Below, in pieces: positions 4,334 through 30,887 of a stretch of DNA of 34,367 nt. A program made the position numbers and the translations under genes. The DNA is from Methanobacteriaceae archaeon (GTDB taxonomy: Archaea; Methanobacteriota; Methanobacteria; Methanobacteriales; Methanobacteriaceae): assembly GCA_030539615.1 (NCBI GenBank), contig JAUNXU010000008.1:1-34367 (forward strand), in the 5' to 3' direction. Below the pieces are notes generated by a model. That model ran no database searches, was not told the origin of the DNA, and saw only the letters and a list, made by a program, of their open reading frames with translations. Numbering within the stretch: the stretch's first letter is position 1; the number at the start of each line of letters is the position of its first letter.

Positions 4334-6919
4334 ATGATGGAATATTCTGATAAATATATACACAATCTTTTACATCCATGGGTAAGTAAATGGTTTAAAT
4401 CAAAATTTGAAAAATTTACTGATGCTCAAAGACAAGCAATACCATATATTAATGCTGGAGAAAATATGCTTATTTTATCCCCAACTGGATCTGGAAAAAC
4501 ATTAACAGCTTTTCTTGCAATATTAAGTGGATTAGCAGGATTAGCACAAAAAAATAAATTAGAAGATAAAGTTTATTGTATTTATATTTCACCATTGAAA
4601 GCATTAGATAATGATATTTATAAAAATTTAGAAGAACCTATACAAGATTTAGATAATATAGCTGGAAAAAAATTGAATATTAGACATGCTGTTAGGACAG
4701 GTGATACAACTTCTTATCAAAAAAATAAAATGTTAAAAAAACCACCTCATATCCTTATAACAACTCCTGAAACATTATCAATAATATTAGTAGCTCCCAA
4801 ATTTAGAAAAAAATTAAGAGATGTGAGATATGTTATTATTGATGAGATTCATTCATTAGCTGAAAATAAAAGAGGAACTCATTTAAGTTTAACTTTAGAA
4901 CGATTAGAAAAATATACTGGAAATTTTACAAGGATTGGATTAAGTGCTACAGTAAGTCCTCCTAAAAAAATAGCTGAGTTTTTAGTGGGGTTTAAATGGA
5001 ATAAACCACGACCGTGTAAAATAATCAATGTAAATTATCAAAAAAAATTAGATATGAAAGTGTTATCTCCAGTAGATAATATTATTGAAACAGATCAAGA
5101 AACTGTTACAAAAGAAACTTATAAATTATTAAATAATTTAATCCAAAATCATGAAACAACTCTTATATTTACTAATACTAGAAGTGGAGCTGAAAGTGTT
5201 TCTTATAAATTAAAACAAATTTATCCTAATAATTATAATAATACTAATGTTATGGCACATCATTCATCATTATCAAAAGAGATAAGATTAGATACTGAAA
5301 CACAATTAAAAGAAGGAAATTTAAAAGTTGTAGTAAGTTCAACTTCATTAGAATTAGGAATTGATATTGGTTATATTGATCTTGTAATATTAATAAGTTC
5401 TCCTAAATCAGTATCTAGAGCCTTGCAAAGAATAGGTAGAAGTGGACATAAATTACATGAAAAATCAAAAGGTAGACTTATAATTGTAAATCGTGATGAC
5501 TTAGTTGAATGTAGTTTAATATTAAAAAATGCTAAAGAAGGAAAAATAGATGAAATAAATATTCCTCAAAAATGTTTAGATGTGCTTGCTCAACATATTT
5601 ATGGATTGGCAATAGAAGAAAAACAGAATATTGATCATGTATATATTATATTAAAACAAAGTCAACCATATCATAATTTATCAAAAGAAGAGTATTATGA
5701 TGTATTAAATTATCTTTCAGGAAAATATATTGAACTTGAACAAAGATATGTTTATGCAAAAATATGGGTTGATTATGATATTAGACAATTTGGAAAACGT
5801 GGAAAATTAGCAAGAGTATTATATTCAACAAATATAGGTACAATACCAGAACATAGTTATGCTAAAGTAAAATGTGCAGGAGATATTATAGGAAATATTG
5901 AAGGAGATTTTCTTGAACGATTAAAAAAAGGTGATACATTTGTTCTTGGAGGAAAAACATATACATTTAAATATGCTCGTGGAATGACTGCTACTGTAAC
6001 TCCTTCAACTTCAACACCTACTATACCTTCTTGGATATCTGAACAACTTCCATTAGCATATGACATTGCAATATCTATACAACAATTTCGAGCAGTTATT
6101 GAATGGAAATTAGATATTGGTAATTCAGAAGAGGAAATAATTGAATATATTAAGAAATATTTATATTTAGATGATAAAGCAGCACATTCCATATATTATT
6201 ATTTTATTGAACAATATTTGTATTCCACAATACCTTCAAAAAAGAAATTGTTAATTGAACATTATACGGGATTTGGAGGTAGGAAATTTTTAATATTTCA
6301 TAGTTTATATGGTAGACGAGTAAATGATGCTTTATCAAGAGCAATAGCATATATTATAGCAAAAGAGTATCATCAAGATATAACAATTAGTATTGATGAT
6401 AATGGTTTTTATTTAAGTTCTGATTCAAAGATAAGTGGAGAACAAGCTTTTAATGAATTAAATTCTGAAAATATTGAAGAAATTCTTAAAAAAGCAATTG
6501 ATCAAACAGAACTTCTTGCAGGACGATTTAGAAATTGTGCAAATAGATCATTAATGATTCTTAGAAGATATAAAGGAAAACAAAAAAGTGTTGGAAAACA
6601 ACAAGTAACAAGTAAAATATTACTTAGTTTTGTTAAAGAATTAGATGATGAATTTACCATATTAAACGAAGCAAGAAGAGAAGTTATAGAAGATTATATG
6701 GATATAAAAAATGCTAAAAAAGTATTAAAATCTATTGAAGAAAAAGAAACTATAATTAAAACCACTAATACCATTATACCAACTCCATTTGCATTTAATC
6801 TAGTTTCAAGAGGATATCTTGATGTATTAAAATATGAAGATAGATCTGAGTTCATAAAACGTATGCATAAAGCAATAATAAATAAAATTAAAGATAAAAA
6901 AAGAAAAGTTAATCAATGA
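4334..6919 (+). CDS. lhr: Lhr-type ATP-dependent DNA helicase (superfamily 2)
   Basis: Large helicase-related protein, a 3'-5' DNA translocase of the archaeal Lhr-core group linked to DNA repair. All SF2 motifs are visible: FTDAQRQAI near residue 28, Walker A PTGSGKT at 50-56, the TTPETL motif, DEIH at 170-173, SAT in [18 protein letters not shown], the [11 protein letters not shown] motif and GRSGH at 368-372. The remaining 480 residues fit the winged-helix and C-terminal region of the family. At 861 residues the length is normal for archaeal Lhr. Two adjacent ATG codons (4334 and 4337) follow a weak AGGT; the first is used here. The stop lies 2 bases from the convergent nucS stop. Confidence 0.93.
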
Positions 6920-6921
6920 TT

Positions 6922-7680
6922 TTAAAAGAATGCATCAAGTGTTGATGGTTTATTACTTTTTAAAAATTCTTTTGGTGGTTCCATACTTTTAAATTCCATT
7001 TGTAAAGATTCTAATTCTTCAAGTGCATCTACTGTAATAGCTGGTGCAACAATGATTCCTCTTACAAAATCTTTATTATCTAAAAAACAATCCACATATC
7101 TTTTTAATTGTTTTACTGCACTCATACCTGCTTGTCTACTTTTAAATTCCAATATCATTAAATGATCTTCTTTATCAACACCCATTAAATCAATAAATCC
7201 ATTATCAGTTTGATATTCTCTTTTTGTTGGCCTAAATCCATGTTCAATTAAATCTGGTTTTTCATAAGCTAAATCTACCATATGTTTTTCATAACCTCTA
7301 ATTTCTAAATCACAAATATCTTCACAGGAATAATAAGATACTGTGTAAAATTCTTCAAATCTAACAATTAATTCTTCATATGGTTTATTATGAACACCTA
7401 TTAATTCAATAGAATCATTTACTACTTTTAAAACATTTTTTGTATTTGGAGCTTGCCAATTTACTGGTTCAAGATTATATTCTTGATGTATCATGAAAGA
7501 TCCATCTTTTTTAAGTATTATCACTCTATCACCAGATGCTAATTTACTTCTAGCACGACCATTATATTCTACAGTGCATTTAACAACAAGTATTAATAAA
7601 GATTTCTTATTTAATCCATCTTCTAATAATTTTAATGCTTCTTTATTACTTGGATTATTAACACATTCATAATTTAAAAT
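6922..7680 (-). CDS. nucS: Endonuclease NucS/EndoMS
   Basis: Mismatch-specific endonuclease that cuts both strands at mispaired bases and works with the PCNA clamp. The C-terminal nuclease domain shows the expected residues in FIDLMG, ILEFKSRQ and VKQLKRYVD, and the protein ends in TLDAFF, a PCNA-interacting (PIP-like) motif. The first ATG in frame (7524) would delete about 50 residues, yet the frame upstream encodes family-like sequence (LNKKSLLILVVKCTVEYNGR, then RSKLASGDRV) back to a stop at 7684-7686. That extension has no ATG, GTG or TTG. An ATT at 7680 lies 6 bases after GGTG (7687-7690), so an ATT start giving 252 residues is proposed. The function is clear; only the start codon is uncertain. 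Confidence 0.88.
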   Translation of the reverse strand: MLNYECVNNPSNKEALKLLEDGLNKKSLLILVVKCTVEYNGRARSKLASGDRVIILKKDGSFMIHQEYNLEPVNWQAPNTKNVLKVVNDSIELIGVHNKPYEELIVRFEEFYTVSYYSCEDICDLEIRGYEKHMVDLAYEKPDLIEHGFRPTKREYQTDNGFIDLMGVDKEDHLMILEFKSRQAGMSAVKQLKRYVDCFLDNKDFVRGIIVAPAITVDALEELESLQMEFKSMEPPKEFLKSNKPSTLDAFF

Positions 7681-7873
7681 AATTTACACCTTCTTAATAA
7701 AAAAATAATAATAAACTCGGTTATTTACAATATATAATATATTTTAAAAAAGAAATATAAAATAATTGTCATTAGTTTTAAGCTAAATAATAATTAATAA
7801 TATAAACAATATAAAATAATAATAAACTAAGAAAATAATTCATATTTAAAAATATATGGAGTAATAATAAATT

Positions 7874-8374
7874 ATGAGTAATATTATAACAAAACATCCC
7901 ATAATTCCTATTTTAATAATTGCATTATTACTATCATACATTACACCTATAAACTATATTATATTATTATTAATTATAGGACTTATTATAGGATATATAT
8001 CTGATAGTATTTTTAAAAGTATTATAACAGGAACATTATATGTAATTTTAAGTTTTATATCTTCTTATCCAGGAGCATTATCTCTTGCACAATATATGCC
8101 AAATATTGATATACCAGTAAATTCTACTTTTTATTCAGTAGCAACAAATTTATCAATATTAATAATTATACCAGTTTTAATAGCTATTATTTTAACAACA
8201 ATAGGAGCAATTTTTGGAAAACAACTTAAAAAAATAACTAGAAAAAATAATCCAAAAAAAGATAATAAAATAAAAAAGAAAGAATATATTACTCAAAAGC
8301 ATAATTATAAGAAAAAACCAACAACAAGAATAGATAAAAAAAAGAAAAATCGAAAAAATCAAGGAGATGAATAA
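7874..8374 (+). CDS. Small membrane protein with a lysine-rich tail
   Basis: Not recognised. The first about 118 residues contain four hydrophobic segments (near residues 8-25, 27-44, 48-66 and 88-115). Most of the rest (about 48 residues) is a strongly basic tail of Lys, Asn and Arg, probably cytoplasmic. GGAG lies about 12 bases before the ATG. The next gene starts 3 bases after the stop, with its ribosome binding site inside the end of this one, so the two are almost certainly cotranscribed. A partner or anchoring role for the oxidoreductase is possible but not shown. Confidence 0.7.
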   Translation: MSNIITKHPIIPILIIALLLSYITPINYIILLLIIGLIIGYISDSIFKSIITGTLYVILSFISSYPGALSLAQYMPNIDIPVNSTFYSVATNLSILIIIPVLIAIILTTIGAIFGKQLKKITRKNNPKKDNKIKKKEYITQKHNYKKKPTTRIDKKKKNRKNQGDE

Positions 8375-8377
8375 ATA

Positions 8378-9580
8378 ATGGTAAATATTATAATAGTTGG
8401 ATCTGGAGCAGGAGGAGCTACAGTAGCCCAAACTTTATCTAAAAACCCGAAAAATAATATAACAATAATTGAAGCAGGTCCACAAGCTAATGTTCAGGAA
8501 TCATATAAATATTACAAATCTTGGGATTATGAATCAATTGAAATTTTATCTACAAAGTTAGTAGGTGGATCAACAACTGTGATTGCTGGAAATATGATAC
8601 CTACTTTAGTTACGGAATTAATGATAAATGGTATAGATATAAATCCACAATTACATAGTTTAGAAGACGAACTAGATATTGTTCCATTACCTTTAAAACA
8701 TACAAAAAAAGGTACTCAAAAATTAATAGATGCTTCTAAAAAGTTAGGATTACATATGGGACGTATGCCTAAAGCCATTAATAGTGATAAATGTATTAAT
8801 TGTGGAAAATGTGCATTAGGATGTCCAATGAATGCAAAATGGAGTTCAATAAGATTTATTAAAGAAGCTGTAGTTGAAAATGCAAAACTTATTACTGACA
8901 CTCCTGTTATTGGATTAATAGTTGAAGACAATAAAATAAGAGGTGTTAAAACAAAAAATAATACATATACTGCAGATATTGTTATTTTAGCTGCAGGTGC
9001 TCTTAACACACCATTATTATTACAAGATATTGGGATTGATGCAGGACATAATCTTTTTGTTGATCCATTTGTTACTATAGGGGGAGTTTTACGAGATATA
9101 AATCAAATTGAAGAAGTATCAATGAATGCTTTACTTGATCTTAATGGAATTGTAATTTCCCCCCATTATAGTGGTATTTTAGAAAAAAAAGTTGAAAAAT
9201 TTGGTGCTAAAAAAGAAGATATTTTAAGTTTAATGGTTAAAATTAAAGATGAAAATAAAGGCACTGTAAAAAATGGATTTATCCATAAAGGAGTATCATC
9301 TGATGATATTGCATTATTATCAAGAGGAACAGGTATTGCTGGAAGTATTTTAGTAGAAGCTGGTGTTGATCCTGAAACAATTGTATCAACACAAGCTAGA
9401 GGTGCTCATCCTGGAGGTACTGCTGCTATTGGAGATATTGTTGATTCTAATTTAATGACTGAAGTTGAAGGATTATATGTTAGTGATGCAAGTGTATTAC
9501 CTGTTGCTCCAGGAGCTCCACCACTTCTAACTATTATGGCATTAGCAAGAAGACTAGGAGAATATATTAATTCTCTATAG
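8378..9580 (+). CDS. GMC-like FAD oxidoreductase with a 4Fe-4S motif
   Basis: The N-terminus has a dinucleotide-binding motif, VGSGAGG (residues 7-13), ending in the acidic ITIIEAG strand. Residues 139-149 hold four cysteines spaced CxxCxxCxxxCP (C139, C142, C145, C149), a ferredoxin-type 4Fe-4S site. The C-terminus (GAHPGGTAAIGD, then YVSDASVLP and PLLTIMALARRLGEYI) is the GMC oxidoreductase C-terminal region with its active-site-type histidine. At 400 residues it is shorter than classic GMC enzymes. The substrate is unknown; the cluster suggests electron transfer to or from a ferredoxin-like carrier. It is cotranscribed with the preceding membrane protein, and its stop directly abuts the convergent thiI stop. 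Confidence 0.82.
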   Translation: MVNIIIVGSGAGGATVAQTLSKNPKNNITIIEAGPQANVQESYKYYKSWDYESIEILSTKLVGGSTTVIAGNMIPTLVTELMINGIDINPQLHSLEDELDIVPLPLKHTKKGTQKLIDASKKLGLHMGRMPKAINSDKCINCGKCALGCPMNAKWSSIRFIKEAVVENAKLITDTPVIGLIVEDNKIRGVKTKNNTYTADIVILAAGALNTPLLLQDIGIDAGHNLFVDPFVTIGGVLRDINQIEEVSMNALLDLNGIVISPHYSGILEKKVEKFGAKKEDILSLMVKIKDENKGTVKNGFIHKGVSSDDIALLSRGTGIAGSILVEAGVDPETIVSTQARGAHPGGTAAIGDIVDSNLMTEVEGLYVSDASVLPVAPGAPPLLTIMALARRLGEYINSL

Positions 9581-22615: not shown

Positions 22616-22825
22616 TTAGAATTTAATTTTAACTACTAATTCGATATCTTCACCTTTAACTGTTTTTCTACCTGCATGTTTTGCAATTTTAACAGCTTCT
22701 TCTGAAATTTGCATACCGATTTCTTCAAGTTCTTTTGTAAGTTCTACTTTTGCATCATCACTAATTCTTGCAGCACCAGCATTTTTTAATAGTCTTCCTA
22801 CTGGAGCAATTGGTAATTCAGACAT
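22616..22825 (-). CDS. Archaeal histone (HMf family)
   Basis: A 69-residue histone-fold protein that wraps DNA as dimers and longer stacks. [20 protein letters not shown], then ISDDAK, and the ending [18 protein letters not shown] match the HMfA/HMfB pattern residue for residue in the DNA-contact and dimer regions. The start is ATG 22825, 7 bases after a perfect GGAGGTGA (22833-22840); an ATG at 22831 would be only 1 base from it. The C-terminus (KIKF) lacks the double lysine tail of HMfB. It is a monocistronic gene with a strong terminator, preceded by a 440-base gap holding the GC-rich hairpin element. Confidence 0.97.
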
Positions 22826-22840
22826 AAACATTTCACCTCC

Positions 22841-23157
22841 TTAATTAATTAATTAATAATATAATCCCATTAGTATTTAAATGTATCGTCTTCTTATAAT
22901 ATTTAAAAATAGTAATTACATTAGTTAGATGTAGAAATATAACAAAAATATGTGAAAAAAGTTTGATAAATAAAAAAAAATATAATCCCAAAATAAGAAT
23001 ACTAAATAAACATTTATTAAAATATTAGTTGAAAAATGAACATTTTAATATACATAAAACTAATTATTAAAAATAACAATTAATTTGTTAAATATGTGAC
23101 ATGATAATTATTGTAAAAATAGTTACATAGACTAATAAAAAAATTTATTATTAATTA
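22841..23157. other. AT-rich gap upstream of the histone gene
   Basis: No gene is seen on either strand. The histone promoter must lie in its left part (for example AT-rich TATA-like sequence around 22895-22910 on the minus strand), but composition prevents a firm call. The right part leads into the GC-rich element at 23158. Confidence 0.4.
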
Positions 23158-23249
23158 AAGCGGGGTGAATAGACGGGTGGTGTCTATCCACCCCTATGAA
23201 GAATAAACTGGTGGTTGTTTAAACTCCATATTTATTTTTTTATTTTTCT
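23158..23249 (+). ncRNA. Candidate structured small RNA (GC-rich double hairpin)
   Basis: A stretch of about 60 bases (23160-23220) is roughly half G+C in otherwise about one-quarter G+C DNA. It contains no credible reading frame. GGGGTG (23162-23167) pairs with CACCCC (23189-23194), then after one A/C mismatch ATAGAC pairs with GTCTAT, leaving the loop GGGTGGT (23075+100 to 23181, i.e. 23175-23181). A second hairpin pairs TAAAC (23204-23208) with GTTTA (23217-23221) around TGGTGGTT, so both loops show GGTGGT. On the plus strand T7 (23235-23241) and T5 tracts follow, as expected for termination. A TATA-like AT stretch at about 23134-23146 would place a start near 23162. The strand is inferred from the T tract. 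A protein-binding DNA dyad or mobile-element remnant remains possible. Confidence 0.45.
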
Positions 23250-23270
23250 TATTATTTAAATATTATTATT

Positions 23271-23278
23271 AAAAAAAA
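23271..23278 (-). terminator. T8 tract after get3
   Basis: Eight T on the minus strand immediately follow the get3 stop codon. This would end the get3 transcript before it reaches the GC-rich hairpin element, supporting independence of that element. Confidence 0.5.
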
Positions 23279-23280
23279 TA

Positions 23281-24402
<1,122 letters not shown>

Positions 24403-24459: not shown

Positions 24460-25194
24460 TCATATTTTCTGTTGGCCATAAACTTCTTTAATAAATGTTA
24501 ATTTCTTAGCAATATCTTCATTTTCAGGATCTAAAATTAAAACTTTGGTTCTCAATGGTTTATCTTTCAATAATTTAAAATATTTTACTTTACTGTAATT
24601 AAATCGTATCTTTCCTTTATTTTTTCCAGCACTAAGAACAGAATCACCATAAACATCAGACAATTCCCCATTAGGCATACAAGTAACAATTAATGATTCT
24701 ATTTTTAGATTAAGTTTATTATACAATATTACAATAAAATAAGTCAAACAAATTTTCTTAGTTTTATCATTTTTAGTGTAAAAAGTAGGTAAATTACCTG
24801 AATATTCCCGTGATTTTGCACCTTTGACTGAAAATTTTCCTTTATAACTATTTTGATTATCTCCAACAAAAATATTCTTACTAAAATCACCAATATTATT
24901 TATAGTAACTGTTTTTATATCAATATGAACAAATGCATTGTATGTTTCAAAAAACATGTCAGACCCTATAGGTGAGGAATTAGGTTCGCCAAATTGATTA
25001 AAAAGCCAATAAAAAATTCTTTCAGATCCTGTAGCAAAATCTGAAGTTTCTTTTCCTAAAAAATCTTCCCAATCTGATTTTATAAGTTCTTTTGTATTAA
25101 ATCCCTTTAACATTTTTTGCTTATCTACCTGTAATAGATAATAAATTTGTTTTAAATATTCATATTCCCAAAATTCTATTTCTTCTAGTTTCAT
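24460..25194 (-). CDS. Type II restriction endonuclease, PD-(D/E)XK-like
   Basis: A 244-residue protein directly downstream of a cytosine-C5 methyltransferase. The candidate active site is GSDMFF (Asp79) followed after a short span by HIDIKT (Asp92-x-Lys94), with Glu58 in an upstream helix, which matches the PD-(D/E)XK nuclease pattern. Length and position are typical of a type II enzyme that recognises the same site as its methylase. The recognition sequence cannot be read from the protein. The ATG lies 15 bases after the methylase stop, with GAGGAT ahead of it. I did not recognise a named restriction enzyme family. Confidence 0.75.
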   Translation of the reverse strand: MKLEEIEFWEYEYLKQIYYLLQVDKQKMLKGFNTKELIKSDWEDFLGKETSDFATGSERIFYWLFNQFGEPNSSPIGSDMFFETYNAFVHIDIKTVTINNIGDFSKNIFVGDNQNSYKGKFSVKGAKSREYSGNLPTFYTKNDKTKKICLTYFIVILYNKLNLKIESLIVTCMPNGELSDVYGDSVLSAGKNKGKIRFNYSKVKYFKLLKDKPLRTKVLILDPENEDIAKKLTFIKEVYGQQKI

Positions 25195-25209
25195 TTTAAA
25201 TAATCCTCT

Positions 25210-26457
25210 TCATGATTTTGCTTTTAACATTTGTCTAGTACAATCTGCAATTTTATGGGCAAGTTTCACAGGGACCGCATTACCTACTTGTCTATGCATA
25301 GAATTAAGACTACCTTCAAATACAAATTCATCAGGAAAAGTTTGTAACATTGCACATTCCCTTACAGAAAGTCTTCGTTTCTTATTTATATGTATTTCAG
25401 GACTAGTAGCAGTTATTGTATCACTAGGCCTATTCCAATTTGTTATACGTAATGATTGCTCAAATACTATTTCTTTTTCAACAAGATCAGTTACATATTT
25501 ATCATATTTATTATCAAAATTAAGAATTTTCTTAAGTTCCCACCAGTCATCAACAGATGGTATAGACCCGGAATTATTATCTTTTCTAAACCAATGCCCT
25601 GCAGTATATTTATATCCTAAATATTCATCTATTTTCTTAACACTCCAATCAGATTTATTTTTCCAATAATTTAAATAATCACAAATATCCGCTTGATTTA
25701 CGTCATATTTTCTTTTCCAAAAAGTATCTGCAACATTAGTATAAGCTATGTGATTATAAATTGTCCTTTCATCTACTTTTATGGGATTATTTGTAATTTT
25801 TATATTTTTTAAAAATCCTATAGTTTCATTAGTAGTAATGTAAGGTTTTAAAGACTTATTTTCTTCTAAATTAGAATCAAAATCTTCCAAAGTAAGTTGT
25901 TTAGATTGTTTTTTGATATTAGTATGTGTTTTAGTAGGGAAAATATTCTTAATATCAATTCGATTTCCTAAAATTATAATTCGTTCTCTTGCTTGAGGTA
26001 CCCCATAATCAGCAGCATTTAAAACTTCAATATTAATTTTATATCCTATATTTTCAAAATCTTGTTTTATCATTTTAAGAACTTTTCCATTTTCCATAGA
26101 AAGAAGTCCCTTAACATTTTCAGCTAGGAATATTTTAGGTTGTTTGTCTTTTATTACCCTGAGCATTTCTTTATATAAAAAATTACGTTTATCATTCATA
26201 TTTCTTTTTGTATTGGCAACTGAAAATCCTTGACATGGAAACCCACCTATAATCACATCAGGATTATTTGGAATGTTATCACTGTCTATGTTACAAATAT
26301 CTCCAAGAACTATGTGATCCCCTATATTTTTTTTATAAGTGGATACCGCATCTTTATCAAAGTCATTTGCCCATTCAATTTTGAAATTAGCTTTTTTAAA
26401 ACCTAAATCCATCCCCCCAGCTCCTGAAAAAAGGGATATTACTGAATAATTTTTCAT
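25210..26457 (-). CDS. DNA (cytosine-5) methyltransferase
   Basis: Methylates a cytosine within a specific DNA site, protecting the chromosome from the partner nuclease. Motif I is FSGAGGMDLGF (residues 10-20), motif IV is GGFPCQGFS with catalytic Cys75, motif VI is ENV (113-115), motif VIII is QARERIIILG, and the C-terminal motifs are RPSDTITA and MHRQVGNAVP. The variable region between VIII and IX, the target-recognition part, contains an aromatic block, YTAGHWFRK, then GSIPSVDDWWELKKIL. At 415 residues it is complete. It is the first gene of the restriction-modification pair, so protection is made before the nuclease. No control (C) protein gene is seen. Confidence 0.93.
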   Translation of the reverse strand: MKNYSVISLFSGAGGMDLGFKKANFKIEWANDFDKDAVSTYKKNIGDHIVLGDICNIDSDNIPNNPDVIIGGFPCQGFSVANTKRNMNDKRNFLYKEMLRVIKDKQPKIFLAENVKGLLSMENGKVLKMIKQDFENIGYKINIEVLNAADYGVPQARERIIILGNRIDIKNIFPTKTHTNIKKQSKQLTLEDFDSNLEENKSLKPYITTNETIGFLKNIKITNNPIKVDERTIYNHIAYTNVADTFWKRKYDVNQADICDYLNYWKNKSDWSVKKIDEYLGYKYTAGHWFRKDNNSGSIPSVDDWWELKKILNFDNKYDKYVTDLVEKEIVFEQSLRITNWNRPSDTITATSPEIHINKKRRLSVRECAMLQTFPDEFVFEGSLNSMHRQVGNAVPVKLAHKIADCTRQMLKAKS

Positions 26458-30815: not shown

Positions 30816-30887
30816 GCCTTGATAGTGTAGCGGATATCACGTGGGACTGCGGATCCCATTACCCGGGTTCAAATCCCGGTCAGGGCA
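30816..30887 (+). tRNA. tRNA-Arg (anticodon GCG)
   Basis: A full cloverleaf folds. The acceptor stem is GCCTTGA with TCAGGGC (one G-T pair). The D arm contains AGCGGATATC. The anticodon stem TGGGA/TCCCA closes the loop CTGCGGA, with anticodon GCG at 30849-30851 reading CGC/CGT (Arg). The T stem is CCGGG/CCCGG with loop TTCAAAT. The discriminator is A and the CCA end is not encoded. There is no intron. The short GC-rich gene stands out from its AT-rich surroundings. Confidence 0.95.

What the first reader, a model, noticed from the sequence alone, without database searches (positions are those of the whole stretch)
23158..23249. GC-rich double hairpin with repeated GGTGGT loops between get3 and the histone gene
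Seen: about 60 bases near 50% G+C in roughly 25% G+C DNA, a 13-bp stem with one mismatch (23162-23194), a second smaller hairpin (23204-23221), and the same GGTGGT motif exposed in both loops. A T-rich tract follows on the plus strand, and get3 has its own terminator before it. No family I can name (tRNA, SRP, RNase P, C/D box, known riboswitch) fits. In AT-rich mesophilic archaea, GC islands outside tRNA/rRNA are a classic mark of structured RNA genes. Paired loops with one accessible motif suggest a protein-binding or RNA-pairing RNA.
Basis: partly seen in the sequence, partly recalled or inferred. Interest (0 to 1): 0.65.

Follow-up and report, generated by a model that had tools for sequence, protein, structure and literature searches.

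The report
Orphan double-hairpin RNA after get3
Just past the get3 gene of an AT-rich gut methanogen (Methanosphaera) lies a short stretch predicted to fold, on the same strand as get3, into two back-to-back RNA hairpins that show the same C-rich word (ACCACC) in both loops; it is the most stable non-coding fold found in half of this genome, but no relative of it was found, so it is probably a young regulatory or 3'-end RNA whose transcription is unproven.

Summary
The GC island and both hairpins are real, and among 77-nt windows covering 116 kb of this genome's intergenic DNA the element folds most stably of all, above every tRNA. On the minus strand (the strand of get3 and the histone gene) all 25 pairs form: HP1 23230-23195 with loop AACCACCA, and HP2 23194-23162 (13 bp) with loop ACCACCC. 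A CACCCC arm, 18 nt and T7 follow. On the plus strand two pairs become A.C mismatches. The element is single-copy and matches no Rfam family. It is absent from 138 other Methanobacteriaceae genomes by sequence and by a covariance model, so covariation could not be tested. Comparison did reveal a Methanosphaera-specific 3'-end signature: a C-rich tract followed by a T-run just after stop codons, 6.5-fold enriched and strand-specific. It follows get3 in 13 of 19 other Methanosphaera and in none of the 19 get3 flanks examined outside the genus. The hairpins occupy that slot on that strand. Best reading: a species-specific structured version of get3's C-rich 3' end, possibly released as a small RNA. 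A trans-acting sRNA like M. mazei sRNA154 is the main rival, but the ACCACC complement is not enriched at ribosome-binding sites. Transcription is unproven.

The parts
23195..23230 (-). Hairpin 1 (7 bp + 2x2 internal loop + 5 bp), loop AACCACCA at 23209-23216
   Evidence: MFE and centroid fold of the minus strand
23162..23194 (-). Hairpin 2: uninterrupted 13-bp stem with one G.U, loop ACCACCC at 23175-23181; abuts hairpin 1
   Evidence: on the plus strand the G.U becomes an A.C mismatch
23162..23167 (-). CACCCC at the 3' side of hairpin 2, matching the genus C-rich 3'-end signature
   Evidence: listed by the signature scan, L061 minus 3165
23137..23143 (-). T7 run, candidate terminator of the element, 18 nt after CACCCC
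   Evidence: sequence
23271..23278 (-). T8 run just after the get3 stop codon, candidate leaky get3 terminator
   Evidence: sequence
23253..23260 (-). TATA-like TTTAAATA centred about 26.5 bp upstream of the first base of hairpin 1; weak evidence
   Evidence: the word occurs about once per kb everywhere and is not enriched upstream of genes
23281..24357 (-). get3/arsA-type ATPase ORF, upstream neighbour on the same strand
   Evidence: relatives 66-73% identical in 19 Methanosphaera genomes
22616..22831 (-). archaeal histone ORF, downstream neighbour with its own promoter-like region; hairpins lie about 330 bp before its start
23235..23241 (+). T7 run on the plus strand, which would end a plus-strand RNA in the rival reading

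Best explanation
The element is an RNA of about 70-95 nt encoded on the minus strand, at the 3' end of the get3 transcription unit. It is a species-specific, strongly folded form of the C-rich 3'-end element that get3 carries across Methanosphaera. Proposed working: RNA polymerase that passes the T8 run after get3 transcribes two abutting hairpins and stops at the T7 run. The hairpins block 3'-to-5' decay and hold the C-rich words (ACCACC, ACCACCC, CACCCC) out for whatever factor reads C-rich 3' ends in this genus. The hairpin piece may persist as a separate small RNA. Shown: sequence, fold stability, single copy, lack of homologs, the genus-level C-rich/T-run signature and its strand. Inferred: transcription, strand, termination, protection and any reader protein.
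For: Most stable 77-nt intergenic fold in about half the genome, minus strand; z -7.5. All 25 pairs form on the minus strand only. C-rich + T6 signature enriched 6.5-fold in the 60 nt after same-strand stops, p 9e-12, reverse-complement control 1.1-fold; own genome alone 4.8-fold, p 8e-5. CACCACC occurs in 7 and GGTGGTG in 0 of 348 own-genome 3' flanks. get3 carries the signature in 13 of 19 other Methanosphaera, against 16 of 170 3' ends in relatives generally, and in 0 of 19 get3 flanks outside the genus. The element's CACCCC + 18 nt + T7 was picked out by the same scan.
Against: A T8 run already stands before the hairpins, so get3 may end upstream. In relatives the C-rich tract is unstructured and lies 0-30 nt after the stop; here it starts more than 60 nt after it. 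No transcript data. The strand evidence from two G.U pairs alone is weak (about 1 in 4 by chance for a given strand). Relatives are not independent, so the p-values for get3 are too small.
Confidence: 0.4

Rival explanations
1. An independent trans-acting small RNA on the minus strand, with its own promoter (TTTAAATA centred 26.5 bp before hairpin 1) and T7 terminator. Two loops carry the same seed (ACCACC) and pair with GGUGGU-like sites in mRNAs, as twin-loop sRNAs do.
For: Fold above all tRNAs; two abutting hairpins with one shared loop word; TATA-like box at fitting distance. Known sRNAs work this way: M. mazei sRNA154 has two loops, loop 2 anti-RBS (PMC5867862); the alpha-r14/cuckoo RNAs repeat an anti-SD word in three loops (PMC10746234).
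Against: GGTGGT is not enriched at translation starts (5 of 511, similar to permuted words; Shine-Dalgarno here is AAAGGAG). TTTAAATA is equally common everywhere. No homologs, so no conserved seed or target.
Confidence: 0.27
2. A plus-strand structured RNA showing GGUGGU in both loops, ending in the T-rich tract at 23235-23247.
For: The plus strand also folds better than shuffles (z -3.6) and is followed by T7 and T5 runs.
Against: Fold is much weaker than on the minus strand (-25.8 against -34.0 for the same 77 nt), with two A.C mismatches. The signature at 3' ends is C-rich, not G-rich, on the sense strand. It would run antisense towards get3.
Confidence: 0.12
3. Not an RNA gene: a chance or DNA-level palindrome, for example a remnant of a foreign insertion or a protein-binding site, with no RNA function.
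For: Restricted to this one genome; orphan DNA is common in intergenic slots, and the neighbouring R-M-like genes (24460-26457) suggest a plastic region.
Against: Single copy with no repeat family, no similar hairpin in viral, phage or plasmid collections, and G.U-consistent stems at the extreme of the genome's fold distribution.
Confidence: 0.21

Closest known systems
Methanosarcina mazei sRNA154
   Same: Archaeal intergenic RNA predicted to show two stem-loops, one with an anti-ribosome-binding-site word (PMC5867862)
   Different: sRNA154 is conserved in Methanosarcina and has tested targets; this element has no homolog and no enriched target site
alpha-r14 / cuckoo RNAs (NfeR1) of alphaproteobacteria
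   Same: Several hairpins with different stems repeat one C-rich word in their loops (PMC10746234)
   Different: Their word CCUCCUCCC matches the Shine-Dalgarno sequence; ACCACC does not match the AAAGGAG used here; different domain of life; three hairpins, not two
Archaeal U-tract terminators read by aCPSF1/FttA
   Same: T-run after the gene end; aCPSF1 KH domains bind the U-tract (PMC8716108)
   Different: The described terminator motif is a U-tract only; neither a C-rich tract nor hairpins are part of it in the passages read
CyaR_RyeE (Rfam RF00112)
   Same: Best Rfam score on the minus strand, 15.7 bits
   Different: Far below the gathering score of 47 and E = 4.7, a chance match

Membership tests
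Any Rfam family (tRNA, SRP, RNase P, C/D, riboswitch and others) | Covariance-model score at or above the curated threshold | tested here: not met
   Only the tRNA-Arg at 30816 passes in the window; permissive scan of the interval gives E 4.7 at best
Twin-loop anti-SD sRNA (sRNA154, alpha-r14 type) | Two or more hairpins with the same seed in the loops | tested here: met
   ACCACC in both loops of the minus-strand fold
Twin-loop anti-SD sRNA (sRNA154, alpha-r14 type) | Seed complementary to ribosome-binding sites of the host | tested here: not met
   GGTGGT in 5 of 511 initiation regions, similar to permuted words; consensus SD is AAAGGAG
Twin-loop anti-SD sRNA (sRNA154, alpha-r14 type) | Conserved family with covarying stems | tested here: not met
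   No homolog in 138 family genomes by BLAST or corrected covariance model
Twin-loop anti-SD sRNA (sRNA154, alpha-r14 type) | Discrete transcript with own start and end | not testable with these tools
   Needs RNA-seq; only a TATA-like word and a T7 run are visible
Methanosphaera C-rich 3'-end element (defined here) | CCCC/CCACC followed within 25 nt by T6 or more, same strand, within 60 nt after a stop codon | tested here: inconclusive
   Pattern present on the right strand (CACCCC + 18 nt + T7), but about 115 nt after the get3 stop rather than within 60
Mobile repeat (REP/MITE type) | Several copies in the genome | tested here: not met
   One copy; other own-genome matches are AT-rich tails of 17-30 nt

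The most novel reading that the evidence does not exclude
Methanosphaera marks a subset of its mRNA 3' ends, get3 above all, with a C-rich RNA word ahead of the U-tract that a dedicated factor reads for termination or mRNA stability. In this species that word has been built into a hyper-stable double-hairpin that also acts as a small RNA. This would be an archaeal 3'-end code beyond the U-tract.
Probability: 0.2. Interest if true: 0.7.

Novelty: new variant of a known kind. Interest (0 to 1): 0.42.

Why it matters
Small RNAs and 3'-end signals of Methanosphaera, common methanogens of the human and rumen gut, appear undescribed: a full-text search for Methanosphaera, small RNA and transcriptome found no relevant paper. 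The element is a sharp, testable candidate because it is the most stable non-coding fold in half the genome. The C-rich tract ahead of the U-tract at get3 and other 3' ends would add a sequence element to archaeal termination, so far described as U-tract recognition by aCPSF1.

Tried and rejected
First covariance model (R1) was built with the structure shifted by one column; its searches are discarded and were repeated with the corrected R2. R2 hits in relatives at E 0.17-1.06 per genome over 139 genomes are at chance level; most of those read closely lie in open frames of about 950-1880 nt, and the two that do not (same site in G002 and G003) resemble only hairpin 1 without the ACCACC loop. 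BLAST of the element against 139 genomes matched only the AT-rich tail (positions about 42-92), shared by countless 3' flanks; the own-genome look-alikes in C43 and C110 are a 3' flank and a ribosome-binding site, not copies. Anti-Shine-Dalgarno targeting: no enrichment. TATA-box support: the word is not enriched upstream of genes. tRNA upstream regions gave no usable promoter consensus. The C-rich signature as a general rule of this window's genes: not seen, since only a minority of ends carry it. Viral, phage and plasmid collections: only chance or AT-tail matches. Leader of the histone mRNA: rejected, because the histone has promoter-like DNA just before its start and the hairpins lie 330 bp upstream. 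An 11-codon ORF over hairpin 1 (MEFKQPPVYSS) has no ribosome-binding site and is expected by chance.

Full report
What is there. The window comes from a Methanosphaera genome: its genus-level relatives in GTDB are mostly named Methanosphaera in the record titles. The get3 gene (23281-24357, minus) is 66-73% identical to that of 19 other genomes of the genus. Between get3 and a histone gene (22616-22831, minus) lies a 60-nt island of 50% G+C in DNA of 25.7% G+C. In a first sample of 122 intergenic regions it was the sixth most G+C-rich, after five tRNA windows.

Fold and strand. On the minus strand positions 23230-23162 form two directly abutting hairpins. Hairpin 1 (23230-23195) has 12 pairs and an AACCACCA loop. 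Hairpin 2 (23194-23162) has 13 uninterrupted pairs and an ACCACCC loop. The energy is -34.0 kcal/mol with z -7.5 (96 nt) and no shuffle as stable. The plus strand reaches z -3.6, because one pair in each hairpin turns from G.U into A.C. Two G.U pairs are weak strand evidence on their own, but the energies and the C-rich signature below point the same way. In 14,040 windows of 77 nt covering 116 kb of intergenic DNA (from 950 kb of the 1.8 Mb genome, both strands) this element is the most stable. The next is a tRNA at -28.5.

Relatives. The element is single-copy. BLAST finds no relative of its GC-rich part in 139 family genomes. Searched without filters, the get3 loci of 19 relatives give nothing below E 0.37. 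Rfam gives nothing. Covariation could therefore not be tested, and the element appears restricted to this species or its close strains.

What the relatives have instead. Immediately after the get3 stop, most Methanosphaera carry a C-rich tract followed by a T-run, for example TTCACCCCCCCCCCTGCTATTTTTTTT or TTTCACCACCACCCTTATTTTTTT. With a fixed pattern, 13 of 19 have it. None of the 19 get3 flanks examined outside the genus do. Genome samples show that this is a strand-specific 3'-end signature carried by a minority of genes: 29 hits within 60 nt after stops against 36 in a roughly eightfold larger remainder of intergenic DNA, 6.5-fold, p 9e-12. The reverse-complement pattern shows 1.1-fold. 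For the window's own genome alone it is 4.8-fold, p 8e-5. About 9% of relatives' 3' ends carry it, so get3 is clearly over-represented, although the relatives are not independent. In the own genome CACCACC occurs after 7 of 348 stops and GGTGGTG after none. The minus strand of the element carries ACCACC, ACCACCC and then CACCCC, 18 nt and T7, and the same scan picks it out. It differs in lying about 115 nt after the stop and behind a T8 run.

How it may work. The best reading is that this is the structured, species-specific form of get3's C-rich 3' end: read-through of the T8 run yields two stable hairpins, the C-rich words are held open in the loops, and transcription ends at T7. A known archaeal 3'-end factor, aCPSF1, binds U-tracts through its KH domains (PMC8716108). 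Whether anything binds the C-rich word is unknown. The main rival is a free twin-loop sRNA. M. mazei sRNA154 (PMC5867862) and the alpha-r14 RNAs (PMC10746234) show that such RNAs exist. However, the complement of the seed, GGTGGT, is not enriched at translation starts here (5 of 511), and the TATA-like word upstream is too common to count. The two readings can both hold if the 3' end of get3 is released as an sRNA.

Verdict. The interest lies in an extreme orphan structure and, perhaps more, in the genus-wide C-rich 3'-end signature that it led to. Transcription remains the missing fact.

Noticed in passing
L005-L023 (get3 3' flanks); own-genome loci L060-L079, L095-L154; relatives L040-L059: Methanosphaera-specific signature of a C-rich tract (CCCC, CACCACC) followed within 25 nt by T6 or more, just after stop codons; strongest at get3, absent from the get3 flanks examined in other genera of the family.
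   Followed up: partly
24460-26457: Two ORFs right upstream of get3 look like a DNA cytosine methyltransferase (by its sequence motifs) with a partner protein, probably a restriction-modification pair inserted next to get3.
   Followed up: no
23194-23229, minus strand: Hairpin 1 coincides with a short ORF ATG...TAG (MEFKQPPVYSS) that ends where hairpin 2 begins; no ribosome-binding site, probably chance.
   Followed up: partly
L073 (G000 contig C12) about 6846-9226: Repeated stretches reading CAAAAAATCAGACCATAGTGGAATTGAAAT look like a CRISPR array.
   Followed up: no
G003:C1:1565918-1565962 (L193) and G002:C98:724-768 (L192): A hairpin resembling hairpin 1 (AAGTTTAAAC...GTTTATACTT) lies outside any long frame in two Methanosphaera genomes, but lacks the ACCACC loop; probably chance.
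   Followed up: partly
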